Source: Planctomycetota bacterium
Lineage (GTDB): Bacteria > Planctomycetota > Brocadiia > JAJRTI01
NCBI GenBank assembly: GCA_024278415.1
Contig: JAJRTI010000247.1
Span: 1 to 5,889 of the forward strand
Length of the DNA: 5,889 nucleotides
Reading direction: 5' to 3'
Both the position numbers and the translations under genes were made by a program. The notes under the pieces are model-generated. The model searched no databases, was not told the origin of the DNA, and worked only from the letters and a program-made list of their open reading frames with translations. Positions 1 through 5,889 of this stretch are shown here, in pieces; the first letter of the stretch is position 1; each line of letters opens with the position of its first letter.

Positions 1-338
1 CCAGCGCGCCACGCGGCCGCGCGGCCGACGATGCCGGCTTTGGACGTGTGCGTGTGGACCACGTCCGGTTGCCGGCGCTTAATGAGCTTGCGGATCGCCA
101 GGAGCGCGCGGAAGTCGCGCCAGGGATGGACCTCGCGTTGGAGGTAAGGCAACACGACGACCTCGACGCCCGTGCGCTCCGCGTATTGGGCGAGGTCTTC
201 CTGCGGCTCGATCGATCGGCCGGTGACAAGCGCGACGCGGTATCCCTTGGCCTGCTGCCGAGCGGCGATGTCCATCACCACTTCGGCCGAGCCCCCGCGG
301 TCGAGACGGGTGATTACGTGCACCACGTTAGCCCGCAT
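1..338 (-). CDS. GT4-family glycosyltransferase, N-terminal part (runs off the left edge)
   Basis: The 112 visible residues form the N-terminal half of a GT-B fold. They open with strand beta-1 and the glycine loop (HVITRLDRGGSAE, residues 7-19), followed by a helix, a second strand (YRVALVTG, 33-40) and the motif HTHTSKAG at 95-102 leading into GR. This pattern is typical of GT4 (glycos_transf_1/4) enzymes, which transfer a sugar from a nucleotide donor to a lipid-linked or polysaccharide acceptor at the cytoplasmic face of the membrane. The N-terminal domain binds the acceptor; the donor-binding C-terminal domain is outside the window, so donor and acceptor cannot be named. The ATG at 338-336 is chosen because an in-frame TGA lies two codons upstream and GGTGAG just precedes it. 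It follows the radical SAM gene on the same strand after 267 bases. The family call is firm; the exact role is inferred from the glycan context. Confidence 0.88.
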   Translation of the reverse strand, partial: MRANVVHVITRLDRGGSAEVVMDIAARQQAKGYRVALVTGRSIEPQEDLAQYAERTGVEVVVLPYLQREVHPWRDFRALLAIRKLIKRRQPDVVHTHTSKAGIVGRAAAWRA

Positions 339-605: not shown

Positions 606-1769
606 TCAGAAGCGGAACAACTCCGTGCAGCGGATGCAGGCGGGGAAGCGTCCTTGCTGCTTCAGCTCCCGGCGGAATTCGACGTAACGCGGGCTGTTCC
701 AGATCTCTCGAAACGTAGCCTCGCGGAGGTTCCCGGCCACAAAGCACAGCGTGTTGCAGGAGCGCACGGAGCCGTCGGGGAAGATGTATGCCACCATCCA
801 CGGGCTCATGCACCGCGGCTTGTAGCTGCGGGCCGTGAAATCGAACGCGGTGTAATACGCGCGCACGTCGTCATCCGTGAGGTTGGGATACACGGACACG
901 GCTACCGGCGAGTCCATGGCCTTCACCTCGCGCAGCTTTTCGAGCAACCGGTCCGGATCGATGGCCGGCAGTGCGTTGACGACGAAGCCCTCCCAATCGG
1001 AGTGCTCGACGCCGAACTTGGAGCCGAAGGCCGCGCAGTGGCGGTCGTAGATCTCGCGGCTGATGAAGATGAGGTGGTGGAAGGTGACCGCGTCCGCGCC
1101 GATGGATTCGCACGTGCGCAGCGTCTCGTCGAGGCGTTCGTAGTTCTCCTCGAAGAGTACGCTGGACACGTTGATGAGCGGTGCTTTGCGTCCGGCCGCG
1201 TCCCGGGCGGCGCGCAGCGCGTCCAGGCCTTGTTTGAGCCGGGCGAACGTGCCCTCGCGTCCGCGAATCTCATCGTGGACGGGCTCGGGGCCGTCGAGCG
1301 ACACGATGATTTCATCCACGCCGGCATCGACCACGCGTTCGGCGTGTTTGGGCAGGAGCGTGCAGTTGCTGATCATGTTGCATCGCAGGCCGGCCGCCTT
1401 CACGTAGCGCACCACGTCTTCCCACCCGTTGTAGAGGAGCGGCTCCCCGCCGAAGAGGGTGATGTTGGGCTTGAAGCCGGCCACGTCGTCGACGAGCGCC
1501 TTGATCTCATCGACGGACAGGCACGCCTGGATCTGCTCCTTGGAGTAGGCCTTGGCTGAGCCCGCTTCGCCCCATTGGCCGCACATCTTGCAGCGCAGGT
1601 TGCACTGGTAGGTGAGGAAGAGGGAGATCGTCTCTGGGAACGCGCTCTTGCCGCGGCCGAAGCGGTAGCTAAGGTCGGAGCGGAGGCGTTGCTTGAACAC
1701 TTGCCACGCGTACCCCGGCTGGCCTCCCGCCTTCTTGAGCGCCCGGAGTAGATTTCGGCGAGGGATCAT
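606..1769 (-). CDS. Radical SAM protein with a C-terminal SPASM/twitch-type domain
   Basis: A 387-residue protein. The motif CNLRCKMC supplies C56, C60 and C63, the CxxxCxxC ligands of the SAM-cleaving [4Fe-4S] cluster. GGEP (107-110) and SLDG (157-160) are the usual SAM-binding and barrel motifs. The C-terminal part has C320, then PDGSVRSC ending at C338, C342, and CIRC (C378, C381), a cysteine layout typical of SPASM/twitch domains that hold an auxiliary Fe-S cluster. Such enzymes start radical chemistry through a 5'-deoxyadenosyl radical, often on peptides but also on sugars and other small molecules; the substrate here cannot be read from sequence. The ATG at 1769-1767 is the first possible start, since an in-frame TGA lies two codons upstream; the ribosome binding site is weak. 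It lies 29 bases after the DUF5989 gene, so the two are probably co-transcribed, and a GT4 gene follows. A role in modifying a glycan or its precursor is inferred from neighbours only. Confidence 0.93.
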   Translation of the reverse strand: MIPRRNLLRALKKAGGQPGYAWQVFKQRLRSDLSYRFGRGKSAFPETISLFLTYQCNLRCKMCGQWGEAGSAKAYSKEQIQACLSVDEIKALVDDVAGFKPNITLFGGEPLLYNGWEDVVRYVKAAGLRCNMISNCTLLPKHAERVVDAGVDEIIVSLDGPEPVHDEIRGREGTFARLKQGLDALRAARDAAGRKAPLINVSSVLFEENYERLDETLRTCESIGADAVTFHHLIFISREIYDRHCAAFGSKFGVEHSDWEGFVVNALPAIDPDRLLEKLREVKAMDSPVAVSVYPNLTDDDVRAYYTAFDFTARSYKPRCMSPWMVAYIFPDGSVRSCNTLCFVAGNLREATFREIWNSPRYVEFRRELKQQGRFPACIRCTELFRF

Positions 1770-2115: not shown

Positions 2116-5100
2116 TCACGCCACCCAACGCTCGCACAGCACCTCCGCCTGCTTCAGCACCGTCACCGTCGCCTGCTCTTGCTTGTCGGGCGGGTAGCCG
2201 TATTTCCGGAGGATGCGCTTCACCATCGCTCGCATCTTCGCGCGCACGCTCTTCTTCACCGACCAGTCGATAGCCACACTGTTGCGGACCCTCTGGACAA
2301 GCTCCTGAGCGATGGCCCGAAGCGTCTCGTCGCCCAGCACGGCCACTGCGCTGTCGTTCACTTCAAGCGCATCGTAGAAGCAACGCTCCTCGAACGACAG
2401 CCCAAGCTCCTCGCCTCGCTTGTCCGCCTCCTTCATCTCCTTCGCCAACTCGATCAGTGCCAGGATCACCTGCGCCGCCTCGATGGTGCGATTCTGATAC
2501 TTGCGGATCGTCCTCTCCAGCATCTCGGCGAACGACCGACCCTGCACGATGTTCGTCCGTGAACGATGTTTGATCTCGTCGTTCAACAGCTTGCGAAGCA
2601 ACTCCATCGCCAAGTTCTTGTGCTTCATCCCCTGCACTTCGGCCAGGAACTCGTCCGACAGGATTGAGATGTCGGGCTTCCGCAATCCCGTTTGAGCGAA
2701 GATGTCGATCACCTTGTCCGACGCCACGGCCCTGGCGATGATCTGCCGTATCGCGGAGTCAATCTCCTCGGGGCTCTTGCCATCCGTGGCCGTGTGCTTG
2801 ATGAACGCCGCGCGAATCGCCTGGAAGAACGCCACGTCCTCACGGATCGCCATCGCGGCGTCGTGCGTGCCGCACAGCGTGAAGGCCCTGGACAACGCGG
2901 TCACCGCGTCGAGGAACCGCTGCTTGCCATTGTCCAGCCCCAGAATGTGCTCCATCGCCGCGGGAATGACCGTGACCCGCTCCGCGGCCGCGCCCGTGAA
3001 GAACTTCCGCCAGTCGAACCCGTGCAGCATGCCGCAGATGATCTCGTATTTCTCCAGCAATACGGCTACGACCTCCTCCTGTGGGATGCCCGTGTTGCGT
3101 CGGTCGCCCTCGGTGTACTCCATCAGCGCCTGCTTCAGTTCGCCAGCCAGGCCGAGGTAGTCCACGACCAGGCCGCCTTGCTTGTCCTTGAACACACGGT
3201 TCACCCTGGCGATGGCTTGCATGAGCCCGTGGCCCCGCATGGGCTTGTCCACGTACATCGTGTGCAGCGACGGCGCGTCGAACCCCGTCAGCCACATGTC
3301 TCGCACGATCACGATCTGGAAGGGGTCGTCAGGGTCTTTGAACCGCTTCGCCAGCTCGCGGCGCTTCTGCTTCGTTCGGATGTGCTGTTGCCACTCAGGC
3401 TCCACCGATGGGTTGCCCGTCATCACCACCTTGATGCAACCCTTCTTGTCGTCCTCGTCGTGCCAGTCCGGTCGCAGCTCGACGATGGCGTTGTAGAGGT
3501 CTACACAGATGCGTCGGCTCATGCACACGATCATCGCCTTGCCCTCCATCGCCGCCTGCCGCTGCTCGAAGTGCTCCACGATGTCGGCGGCGATCAGCTT
3601 CACTCGTTTCTCAGCGCCCACCATCGCCTCCAGCCTTGCCCACTTGCTCTTGAGCTTCTCCTTTTCGTCCGCCTCCTGGCCTTCCGTCACTTCCTCGAAG
3701 TCTGGGTCGATCTTCGGCTTCTCCTCTTCGCTCAGTTCGATCTTGGCCAGGCGTCCTTCGTAGTAGATGCGCACCGTGGCCTCGTCTTCCACCGCCTGCT
3801 CGATGTCGTAGATGTCGATGTCGTCGCCGAACACCGCGCGTGTGCTGCGGTCCTGCGACTCGATGGGCGTGCCCGTGCACCCGATGAACGACGCATTCGG
3901 CAGGGCGTCCCGCACGTACTTGGCGAACCCGTACGCGATGCGGCTCTCGCCAGTCTTCTTGTTGACGACCACCTTCGCCTTGAACCCATACTGGCTTCGG
4001 TGCGCCTCGTCGGCGATGAAGATGATGTTGTGGCGCTTGGACAGGGGCGGCTCGGTCCCGGCAGCGCGCTCCGCTTCCGCCCTCCTTCCCCCTTTGGGGG
4101 GAGGTTGGGATGGGGGACCCTCACCCCCGACCCCTCTCCCAGAGGGTGAGGGGGGCTCGGAACTCCTTCCCCCTCTGGGGGAAGGCCGGGATGGGGGCGA
4201 CTTGCTTGGGGAAGGCCGGGATGGGGGCGACTTGCTTGGGGAAGGCCGGGATGGGGGACCCTCACCCCCGGCCCCTCTCCCAAAGGGTGAGGGGGGATCG
4301 GAGGGGGACACGGCCTCCTCCAATTCCGTCAGCGCCCGCCCCGTCTCGCCAAGCACGACCTCGTTCCGCAGCCGCAGCACCCTGAAGCCCAGCGCCTCCA
4401 GTTTCGCATCGCGTGCCGCGTCACGCATCTCAGCCTCCGGCGTGTCATGCGCGGCGCCATCGATCTCGAGCACAAGCTGCTGCTCGTGGCAGTAGAAGTC
4501 CACGATGTAGTCGCCGATCTGATGCTGGCGACGGAACTTGAGCCCAAGGAACTGCCGGTTTCGCAGCAATTTCCACATCAGCTCTTCGGCGCGAGTTTGG
4601 GTCTGGCGCAGTTCGCGCGCCAGAGTGACGAGGTGCGCGATGGGCAACCCGCCGCGGTAGTGACCCCGCCCCCCTCCTTCCCCCTTTGGGGGAAGGCCGG
4701 GATGGGGGTACCCCTTTGGGCCAAGGCCGGGATGAGGGGCGGAGCCCTCACCCCCTGCGCCAGAGCCCTCACCCCCGGCCCCTCTCCCAGAGGGTGAGGG
4801 GGGCTCCGAACTCCTTCCCCCTCTGGGGGAAGGCCGGGATGGGGGTGACTCGCTTGGGGAAGGTTGGGATGGGGGCTCCCCATCCCCCTCACCCTCTGGG
4901 AGAGGGGATAGGGGTGAGGGCGAGAACTTCTGAATCGTAGTAAACACCACTCCCCCCGAAGCGACCGACAGCAACTCCCGCAAATGCTCCCGGCTCTCCG
5001 CCTGCACGGGCGCTTGTCGCAGCAAGTCGCTGCACGCGGAGAACGTGTCGAACAACTGGTCGTCCAGATCGTTCCGATCCGTCAGCACCACGAGCGTCGG

Positions 5101-5889
5101 GTTGTCCATTTCCTCGCGCTGGATGATCTTCCCCGCGTAGAACGCCATCGACAGGCTCTTGCCACTGCCCTGGGTGTGCCAGATCACGCCCACCCGCTTG
5201 TCGCCTTCAGGCGACGCCGCCCGCACCGTGCACTCGACCGCCTTGTTCACCGCGTGGAATTGGTGGTAGCCCGCCATCTTCTTCGTGATCGTCGCTCCGT
5301 CCGACTCGAACACGATGAAGTGCCGCAGCAGATCGAGGAAGCGCGCCTTGTCGAACACTCCCTTCACCACCACGCCCAGCTCAGCCGCTTTCTTCGCCGC
5401 GACCTCCGTCCCATCAATCGTGCGCCAGGGCATGAACCAATCCCATCCCGCGGTCAGCGATCCGACCCGCGCCTCTGTGCCGTCCGACACGACGCAAGCT
5501 TCGTTGTGCGTGAACAGGCTCGGTATCTGCTGCTTGTACGTCTGCAACTGGTTGAATGCGGCCTTGATCGTCGCGTTCTCGTCCGCCGGGTTCTTCAACT
5601 CGATCACGGCCAGCGGCAGGCCGTTCACGAACACCACGATGTCGGGCCGCCGGTTGTAGTCGCCCTCCACGACCGTGAACTGGTTCACCACGAGCCAGTC
5701 GTTGTTGTCCACGTCATCGAAGTCGAACAGTTTCGCATTCCGGTGGATCGTGCGGCCTTCGGCTTGGAACTCGACGGGCACTCCTTCGACCACGAACTTG
5801 TGGAAGCGTCGGTTGTTCTCGGCCAGGCTGGGGCTTTCGGTGATGAGCAGCTTCCGCGCCGCGTCGTCCAGCGCATCCGCTGGGATGTC
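2116..5889 (-). CDS. hsdR: Type I restriction enzyme R subunit (HsdR) with a DUF559 insert; N-terminus beyond the window
   Basis: 1257 residues are visible; the frame runs to the right edge, so the true start is outside (the internal GTG at 5793-5791 is not a start, because family-like sequence such as NNRRFHKF precedes it). In order: the PD-(D/E)xK nuclease with RRPD (D83), ELK (E97, K99) and the QxxxY motif (Q114, Y118); Walker A TQGSGKS (239-245); motif Ia [12 protein letters not shown] (269-280); FTTIQKF ending at 322; a foreign insert of about residues 324-603; DEAH (627-630); TGTP (672-675); motif [10 protein letters not shown] (891-898); and a helical C-terminal region ending at 1257. 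HsdR translocates DNA with ATP and cuts it in a complex with HsdM and HsdS, which are not in this window and may lie upstream to the right. Without the insert the visible part is 977 residues, normal for the family once the missing N-terminus is added. All nuclease and helicase motifs are intact, so the gene does not look dead, but whether the protein works with its insert is unknown. Confidence 0.93.
4118..4228. repeat. 111-bp direct repeat, left copy
   Basis: By eye this matches 4766-4876 with 6 differences over 111 bases and no gap. It contains module B, a CTCGGAACT linker and two A-type modules. The two copies are 648 bases apart, exactly 216 codons, and flank the DUF559 region in the same orientation. 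Confidence 0.85.
4181..4257. repeat. 30-bp tandem repeat, 2.6 copies
   Basis: Two perfect copies (4181-4210, 4211-4240) and 17 bases of a third (4241-4257) of a unit beginning GAAGGCCGGGATGGGGG. Each unit adds ten residues ([14 protein letters not shown]) to the HsdR fusion, so a change in copy number would keep the frame. Confidence 0.9.
4309..4647 (-). other. DUF559 (Vsr-like PD-(D/E)xK endonuclease) domain within HsdR
   Basis: Residues 415-527 of the visible HsdR product, 113 residues, match the DUF559 family from end to end: [20 protein letters not shown] (helix with the conserved T-x-AE-x-x-x-W), then [21 protein letters not shown] with the invariant FRRQ and D in VDFYC, then [10 protein letters not shown] with E-x-DG-x-x-H, and the closing [19 protein letters not shown]559 belongs to the PD-(D/E)xK nuclease superfamily near Vsr mismatch endonucleases; the presumed catalytic acidic residues are present, so the domain looks intact. 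Most family members are free-standing small proteins. Here no ATG or ribosome binding site lies before the domain and the frame is continuous with hsdR, so it is annotated as a domain of the fusion, not a separate gene. A proteolytically released or internally started product cannot be excluded. Confidence 0.87.
4766..4876. repeat. 111-bp direct repeat, right copy
   Basis: Partner of 4118-4228 with 6 differences by eye. Homologous recombination between the copies would remove 648 bases including the whole DUF559 domain and leave hsdR in frame with one repeat block. Confidence 0.85.
4898..4920 (+). other. Predicted G-quadruplex motif
   Basis: On the + strand four G-runs (GGG, GGGG, GGGG, GGG) are separated by three-base loops AGA, ATA and TGA. 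This fits the standard G3+ with short loops rule. It lies on the template strand of hsdR at the entry edge of the inserted cassette, within the inverted module B. Folding in vivo is not shown. Confidence 0.5.

What the first reader, a model, noticed from the sequence alone, without database searches (positions are those of the whole stretch)
4081..4920. A second nuclease domain (DUF559) wrapped in palindromic repeats is inserted in frame into the HsdR helicase
Seen: HsdR is continuous from FTTIQKF to the DEAH-box segment except for about 280 foreign codons holding an intact-looking DUF559 domain between palindrome-rich blocks, with no stop or frameshift. Known: DUF559 is a Vsr-like PD-(D/E)xK family, and this loop between helicase motifs is short and variable in HsdR. 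Inference: the nuclease and its repeats form a cassette that spreads into genes while keeping the frame, perhaps by nuclease-assisted copying, comparable in logic to REP elements with RAYT proteins or to inteins and homing endonucleases but without a known mechanism. The fusion could also give HsdR an added cleavage activity.
Basis: partly seen in the sequence, partly recalled or inferred. Interest (0 to 1): 0.82.

Follow-up and report, generated by a model that had tools for sequence, protein, structure and literature searches.

The report
Swappable nuclease cassette inside restriction gene
A restriction-enzyme gene carries, in frame, a second DNA-cutting domain bounded by palindromic DNA; the same kind of cassette sits at a few fixed spots in restriction genes of many bacteria and can be swapped independently of the host gene, much like a homing element that never splices out.

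Summary
An open 1257-codon hsdR frame (window 2116-5889, minus) contains 840 bases (4081-4920): a DUF559 nuclease domain (4312-4626) between palindrome blocks. It is not an ancestral HsdR domain: among HsdR genes fetched from one phylum, 23 of 26 readable loops at this spot are empty, 1 holds palindromes only, 2 hold the cassette. Related cassettes occupy five HsdR sites, two well-supported HsdM sites and HsdS; 37 of 38 embedded DUF559 genes examined are restriction, DNA-methylase or DUF1156 genes. One palindrome is read in all three frames in different copies, so it is conserved as DNA. The D, E, D, H residues of the nuclease are 99-100% conserved. Hosts 89-97% identical can carry cassettes only 68-71% identical at one site, in another linker frame. 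DUF559 also sits in the nuclease position of two inteins, and its model ranks homing endonuclease I-Bth0305I above Vsr. Best reading: a palindrome-bounded, non-splicing, homing-like cassette specialised for restriction-modification genes. Cleavage and homing are untested, and no exact empty/filled allele pair was found.

The parts
2116..5889 (-). hsdR (type I restriction endonuclease subunit), 5' end beyond the window, 1257 codons in the window
   Evidence: TIGR00348 606 bits, over cut-off
4921..5889 (-). host part before the insert, ending ...[11 protein letters not shown]
   Evidence: residues 1-312 are 86% identical to P0001
4081..4920 (-). whole in-frame insert, 840 bases = 280 codons
   Evidence: site corresponds to HsdR profile positions 414/415
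4660..4920 (-). left repeat block (reads [15 protein letters not shown]...GRG): A-type (CCCTCACCCC + hairpin) and B-type (CCCCCATCCC + hairpin) palindromes
4884..4920 (-). outermost left A-type palindrome unit, inverted partner of the units at 4765-4802, 4118-4154 and 4259-4295
   Evidence: inverted repeats I1-I3, 89-92% complementary
4312..4659 (-). type A nuclease module: YRGG leader plus DUF559
   Evidence: AlphaFold2 mean pLDDT 89.7; best fold matches 3hrl, I-Bth0305I, Vsr
4312..4626 (-). DUF559 domain (residues 422-526), PD-(D/E)XK/Vsr-like nuclease
   Evidence: Pfam E 2.8e-34; conserved D, E, D, H
4081..4311 (-). right repeat block (reads ...[13 protein letters not shown]...[18 protein letters not shown]): A- and B-type palindromes
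4118..4154 (-). right A-type palindrome unit, followed outward by one more B-type unit (4081-4116)
   Evidence: GGGTGAGGGT present on this side
2116..4080 (-). host part after the insert, through ...[17 protein letters not shown] (DEAH box) to the stop
   Evidence: residues 627-1257 are 84% identical to P0001

Best explanation
The insert is one copy of a palindrome-bounded mobile cassette whose gene product is a Vsr/EDxHD-like nuclease (DUF559). It lives as a permanent, non-splicing, in-frame domain in flexible loops of restriction-modification proteins. Shown: anatomy, related inverted ends, sporadic presence, several sites and genes, different cassettes in near-identical hosts, conserved nuclease residues, DUF559 in two inteins. 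Inferred: the nuclease cuts a cassette-free or divergent allele (or the palindrome itself) and the break is repaired from a cassette-bearing copy, using flanks or the palindromes as homology (homing or gene conversion); only copies that keep the frame in a tolerant loop persist. Nuclease-free palindromes at the same loops would be the non-autonomous form and perhaps landing pads.
Against: No cleavage or homing shown. No target-site duplication or exact empty/filled pair found. Ends are not uniform: 9 of 22 lack at least one exact 10-mer and the best inverted repeat is imperfect, 9-40 nt long. No recent jump between genes seen (closest 78%). Cassettes usually track the host (Spearman 0.55-0.83). 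Swap pairs are not independent. Most contigs are metagenomic and shared short repeats could cause chimeric assembly, though P0016, P0029, P0070 and P0110 are each seen on 2-4 contigs. E. coli ycjD (DUF559) is stable beside fabI: 3359 of 5426 genomes hold most of the region, with no clean empty site in the strains fetched.
Confidence: 0.6

Rival explanations
1. Adaptive domain fusion: DUF559 is kept because it adds a nuclease to the type I restriction complex (HsdR, HsdM and HsdS assemble together); the repeats are only flexible linkers.
For: 37 of 38 embedded hosts examined are restriction, DNA-methylase or DUF1156 genes. Embedded copies form one side of a tree split, 85 of 90 sampled, against 62 stand-alone of which one (P0275) falls inside, support 0.91. 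Nuclease residues conserved. A DUF559 protein, VsrA, is tied to a methyltransferase in Caulobacter (PMC12907096, passages seen). In the model the nuclease is a separate domain on disordered linkers.
Against: The left linker is a DNA palindrome read in three frames; palindromes without nuclease sit in the same loops; cassettes also sit in LeuRS (P0127) and BioF (L196), which are not restriction proteins; sporadic and swapped.
Confidence: 0.2
2. Passive passenger: REP-like palindromes, moved by some other enzyme, insert in tolerant loops; DUF559 is carried along and cassettes are exchanged by ordinary homologous recombination.
For: Other palindromes sit in the same loops: L052 in HsdM, L042 in HsdR. 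Two odd proteins look like recombination between copies: P0205 (HsdM start, HsdR end) and P0276. REPs inside genes are known (PMC3733652, passages seen).
Against: DUF559 genes themselves are flanked by inverted repeats in 58 of 64 loci and the domain is under purifying selection, as for an element's own enzyme. The hsdR protein itself has no transposase domain; the rest of the carrier genome could not be searched.
Confidence: 0.17
3. Assembly error or decaying pseudogene.
For: Repeats invite misassembly; L191 has lost the frame at its right repeat.
Against: P0001 and many others share the arrangement; very long contigs carry it (P0202, longest contig 4,079,427 bases; G350 contig C1); open frame and conserved nuclease residues.
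Confidence: 0.03

Closest known systems
Homing endonucleases of inteins and introns (EDxHD type, I-Bth0305I)
   Different: No splicing domain here; the cassette stays in the protein; bounded by palindromes; hosts are mostly restriction genes, several loops each
REP elements with RAYT transposases (REPtrons, TIRtrons)
   Same: Nuclease gene between inverted palindromes of hairpin plus tail, with nuclease-free palindromes elsewhere
   Different: Enzyme is PD-(D/E)XK-like, not a Y1 HUH transposase; no GTAG end tag noticed; read through in frame
Rickettsia palindromic elements and other in-frame repeats (RPE; Delihas RU elements)
   Same: Palindromic DNA inserted in frame in genes, tolerated as extra peptide
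   Different: Those are not described as carrying a nuclease (recalled; abstract of PMC2759123 seen); here a nuclease gene lies between the palindromes and hosts are mostly restriction genes
Vsr and stand-alone DUF559 proteins (E. coli YcjD, Caulobacter VsrA, NGO0050/3hrl)
   Different: Embedded type A copies form their own group with a YRGG leader and the opposite palindrome orientation

Membership tests
DUF559 (PF04480) | Pfam profile over gathering score | tested here: met
   117.7 bits against 20.6
DUF559 (PF04480) | conserved D...E-x-D...H residues of the nuclease | tested here: met
   99-100% in 297 type A copies; the window has all four. That they are catalytic is inferred from the family
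HsdR of type I restriction | HSDR_N, SWI2_SNF2 and C-terminal domains; TIGR00348 over cut-off | tested here: met
Intein | Hint/splicing motifs at both ends | tested here: not met
   no intein model matches the window protein; the C-terminal model is met in other loci, L188 and L216
Homing endonuclease element | cuts the empty allele at the insertion site | not testable with these tools
   needs biochemistry
Homing endonuclease element | presence and sequence at one site decoupled from host descent | tested here: met
   for a minority of pairs: 58 pairs among 36 proteins; sporadic presence; otherwise cassette and host correlate
Homing endonuclease element | homing-endonuclease fold | tested here: met
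   [not shown]
REP/RAYT | Y1 (HUH) tyrosine transposase in the element | tested here: not met
   no such Pfam match in the protein of the insert and its host
REP/RAYT | nuclease gene flanked by inverted palindromes | tested here: met
   58 of 64 stand-alone DUF559 loci; embedded ones
Insertion sequence/transposon | terminal inverted repeats | tested here: inconclusive
   shared ends in 13 of 22 (exact 10-mers) to 18 of 22 (8-mers), inverted repeats imperfect
Insertion sequence/transposon | target-site duplication | tested here: inconclusive
   no close enough empty site
Rickettsia palindromic element | palindrome in frame inside a gene | tested here: met
   sequence kinship with RPE not tested

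The most novel reading that the evidence does not exclude
DUF559 is the enzyme of a widespread, largely undescribed class of prokaryotic selfish element: palindrome-bounded cassettes that home into restriction-modification genes and stay there as non-splicing, in-frame protein domains, with nuclease-free palindromes as their non-autonomous derivatives.
Probability: 0.4. Interest if true: 0.9.

Novelty: new variant of a known kind. Interest (0 to 1): 0.78.

Why it matters
Mobile nucleases inside genes usually come with a splicing device (intein or intron) that spares the host (recalled knowledge). Here a nuclease with palindromic ends appears to spread among the genes of bacterial immune systems by being tolerated as an extra domain. 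It would give a role to DUF559, a common family still named 'protein of unknown function', would link an abundant class of palindromes to an enzyme, and offers a simple test (allele conversion in laboratory strains).

Tried and rejected
Ancient domain: rejected, most homologs looked at are empty at the site. Plasmid or phage element: unlikely, 43 of 72,556 plasmid records and 2 of 50,697 phage records match. Polymorphism in E. coli (ycjD): no clean empty site; the two fetched strains without it carry efflux genes there (L205, L207); H82 proved to be another place. Perfect terminal inverted repeats: my first impression by eye was too strong; a recount gives exact 10-mers at both ends in 13 of 22. 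Target-site duplication by eye on type A ends: none consistent. Close empty alleles in the families of two cassette genomes: none (1 of 4 and 1 of 39 genomes matched, the query genomes themselves). Four long frames with DUF559 (L081, L102, L131, L219) were dropped from the host count because the frame may be an accidental extension. Of the 37 hosts counted, 33 rest on Pfam or the HsdR profile; L181 is a DUF1156 protein by Pfam; L180, L193 and L216 rest on partial NCBIfam matches under cut-off; that DUF1156 proteins are methylases is recalled. The site label M156 (2 proteins) is doubtful, as P0276 looks like a deletion product, and M232 rests on one protein. HsdS labels were given by hand. The 561-residue HsdR model has pTM 0.50, so only domain-level statements are used.

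Literature: nine searches of the open-access library listed no paper on DUF559 cassettes in genes; most subscription papers and bioRxiv are not held. Seen: passages of PMC12907096, PMC3733652 (one search found none of its three terms there) and PMC1189080; abstract and outline of PMC2759123; the rest only as listings. Knowledge of RPEs, EDxHD homing endonucleases and type I complex assembly is otherwise recalled.

Full report
What is there. The minus-strand frame 2116-5889 encodes a type I restriction subunit HsdR. Between ...[11 protein letters not shown] and the DEAH box lie 840 bases (4081-4920), exactly 280 codons, without stop. They hold a DUF559 domain (E 2.8e-34) between two blocks of palindromes. 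Two palindrome types occur, A (CCCTCACCCC plus hairpin) and B (CCCCCATCCC plus hairpin); their 10-nt motifs are found only inside the insert. The genome of the window is not held. The closest relative listed, P0001, has the same cassette at the same site, with host parts 84-86% and nuclease 79% identical, while the repeat blocks differ.

It is not an ancestral part of HsdR. At the window's loop, 68 of 76 readable loops are short and empty; 8 are longer: L061 has the cassette, L029, L033, L049, L052, L065 and L074 have palindrome-coded peptides without nuclease, and L042 a different palindrome (L033's cassette is at another site). In 387 genomes of the phylum of L061's genome, 36 carry a close HsdR; of 30 loci fetched, 26 had a readable loop: 23 empty, 1 palindrome only (L253), 2 with cassette (L238, L254). 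The nearest empty relative, L239, is 86% identical to L238 over the part compared. In one genus (that of G350, a Nitrospira by kinship to L029's search group), 12 of 79 genomes have a match to the nuclease; of 16 HsdS loci found there, 3 are filled, 11 readable ones empty and 2 were not read by my pattern. Filled HsdS genes share a flank (VRRNxxRxRNQ) that the empty ones lack, which fits co-transfer of flank and cassette but also a single old insertion.

Where cassettes sit. Protein searches with the window's DUF559 list mainly HsdR, HsdM and HsdS carriers (361 and 384 hits, best 120 of each listed). Mapping 278 copies on HsdR and HsdM profiles gives HsdR sites near profile positions 109, 228, 265, 287-320 and 411-424 (7, 14, 36, 86, 39 copies; the window is in the last) and HsdM sites near 394-405 and 445-450 (85 and 8), plus two poorly supported HsdM labels (2 and 1); 48 of 326 copies could not be placed. 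The gap between host parts has a median of 2 profile positions; it lies between -5 and 15 in 206 of 278 copies, above 15 in 59 and below -5 in 13.

Genome searches that ignore the host gene agree. Matches with at least 100 bits lie in open frames of 323 codons or more in 6 of 6, 9 of 9, 2 of 3, 6 of 6 and 6 of 6 cases. Weaker matches are in frames under 300 codons in 69 of 72 and 8 of 8; with the stricter threshold, 4 of 11 and 4 of 7 weaker ones are in long frames, and 2 of 8, so the division is not clean. With the Pfam model in 199 genomes of another phylum, the strong matches are mostly in frames under 300 codons. Of 38 embedded genes examined, 37 are hsdR, hsdM, hsdS, other DNA methylase or DUF1156 genes: 21 of 21 for the YRGG type (type A: 10 hsdR, 6 hsdM, 5 hsdS) and 16 of 17 for others; the exception is BioF (L196). 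Four doubtful frames were left out, and L180, L193 and L216 rest on partial matches. LeuRS P0127, with two copies, is a further non-restriction host from the protein search; it and BioF L196 score over their family cut-offs.

The palindromes are DNA elements. In 21 type A loci plus the window, the ends ACCCTCACCC (left) and GGGTGAGGGT (right) are both exact in 13 of 22, and their 8-nt cores both present in 18 of 22; the best inverted repeat between the two flanks is 9-40 nt and imperfect in most. Type B and stand-alone copies have the opposite order, hairpin outside. Stand-alone DUF559 genes have inverted repeats on both sides: 58 of 64 exceed the 95% level and 53 of 64 the 99% level of 384 shifted controls from the same loci; 39 of 64 exceed the 95% level of flanks paired across loci, a harder control because repeat families are shared. 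In 297 type A copies the left palindrome is read in frame 1 (101), 2 (67) or 3 (85), with 41 unclassified and 3 double. A peptide linker would not do this. A consensus read by eye is open in all three frames on the left in one variant (two in another) and in two of three on the right. HsdM shows a second landing loop: in loci L001-L080, 15 of 17 readable loops are empty (9 residues) and 2 carry palindromes, one of another family (L012, L052); loci fetched because they carry DUF559 have palindromes only in this loop (L123, L191, L200, whose cassettes lie further on) or the cassette (L153).

Cassettes and hosts are partly decoupled. Within a site, cassette and host identity correlate (Spearman 0.55-0.83 at five sites), so inheritance with the host is common. 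But P0016 and P0029 are 97% (C-part) and 89% (N-part) identical with cassettes of 71%; P0045 and P0110 95%, 90% and 68%; and P0090 and P0200 have hosts of 23-26% with cassettes of 71%. There are 58 pairs among 36 proteins with host at least 82% and cassette under 72%, 45 of them at the window's site; the left linker is in another frame in 35 of 55 resolvable pairs against 18 of 136 co-inherited pairs. Pairs are not independent. In seven proteins with two comparable copies, 14 of 14 copies have a nearest relative other than the sister copy; sister ranks run from 2 to 114. On a tree of 258 copies the site label changes 37 times and the gene label 20 times, against shuffled minima of 143 and 79: site-faithful, with repeated moves. 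The closest labelled cassettes in different genes are 78% identical, so the moves look old. Tree error on a 110-residue domain and the doubtful label M156 may inflate these counts.

How it most likely works. Shown: a bounded, sporadic, exchanged, selected nuclease cassette in frame. Inferred: the nuclease opens an allele lacking it (or a palindrome), and repair copies the cassette; the frame is kept because only such copies survive in a needed or useful gene, helped by a palindrome that is open in most frames. Why restriction genes are preferred is not settled: tolerance, frequent transfer of such genes, or benefit from a nuclease in the complex are all possible. P0205 (HsdM start joined to HsdR end through one cassette) and P0276 suggest recombination between copies, or chimeric assembly.

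Limits. No cleavage, no homing and no exact empty/filled pair was shown; most material is metagenomic. Linker frames and loops were classified with simple patterns. The adaptive-fusion reading can coexist with mobility.

Noticed in passing
L188 (minus, 151-2388) and L216 (1-2097): DUF559 in the endonuclease position of inteins in DNA methylase genes (CGSGTT motif after the intein), found in two different searched groups.
   Followed up: partly
P0127 and L196:535-2445 (minus): DUF559 cassettes inside housekeeping enzymes: two in a leucyl-tRNA synthetase, one in BioF, hosts still over their family cut-offs.
   Followed up: partly
L052 (HsdM loop) and L042 (HsdR loop): Palindromes of other families (peptides SRHSGESRNP and LPAPSGARQAG) in frame in the same loops that take the DUF559 palindromes.
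   Followed up: partly
P0055, P0121, P0144: GIY-YIG (PF01541) domains are listed in the same HsdR/HsdM proteins as DUF559; a second nuclease family may behave likewise.
   Followed up: no
P0205, P0276: Chimeric proteins joined through one cassette (HsdM to HsdR; HsdM with a deletion), suggesting recombination between copies or assembly collapse.
   Followed up: partly
E. coli sapF-fabI region (L203, L204, L206): E. coli ycjD is a DUF559 gene with a CCCTCACCCC-type palindrome at its 3' end in L204; two fetched strains without it have efflux genes there.
   Followed up: partly
L029: Nitrospira locus with a DUF559 in HsdS bounded by another repeat type (ITPPLRGSRQGKDEV) and a 129-residue palindrome array in the HsdR loop.
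   Followed up: partly
window 606-1769, 1799-2137, 3-338 (minus): Neighbours look like a radical SAM/SPASM protein, a small membrane protein and a glycosyltransferase start (names recalled from sequence, no search made); no hsdM or hsdS recognised in the window.
   Followed up: no
[not shown]
   Followed up: no
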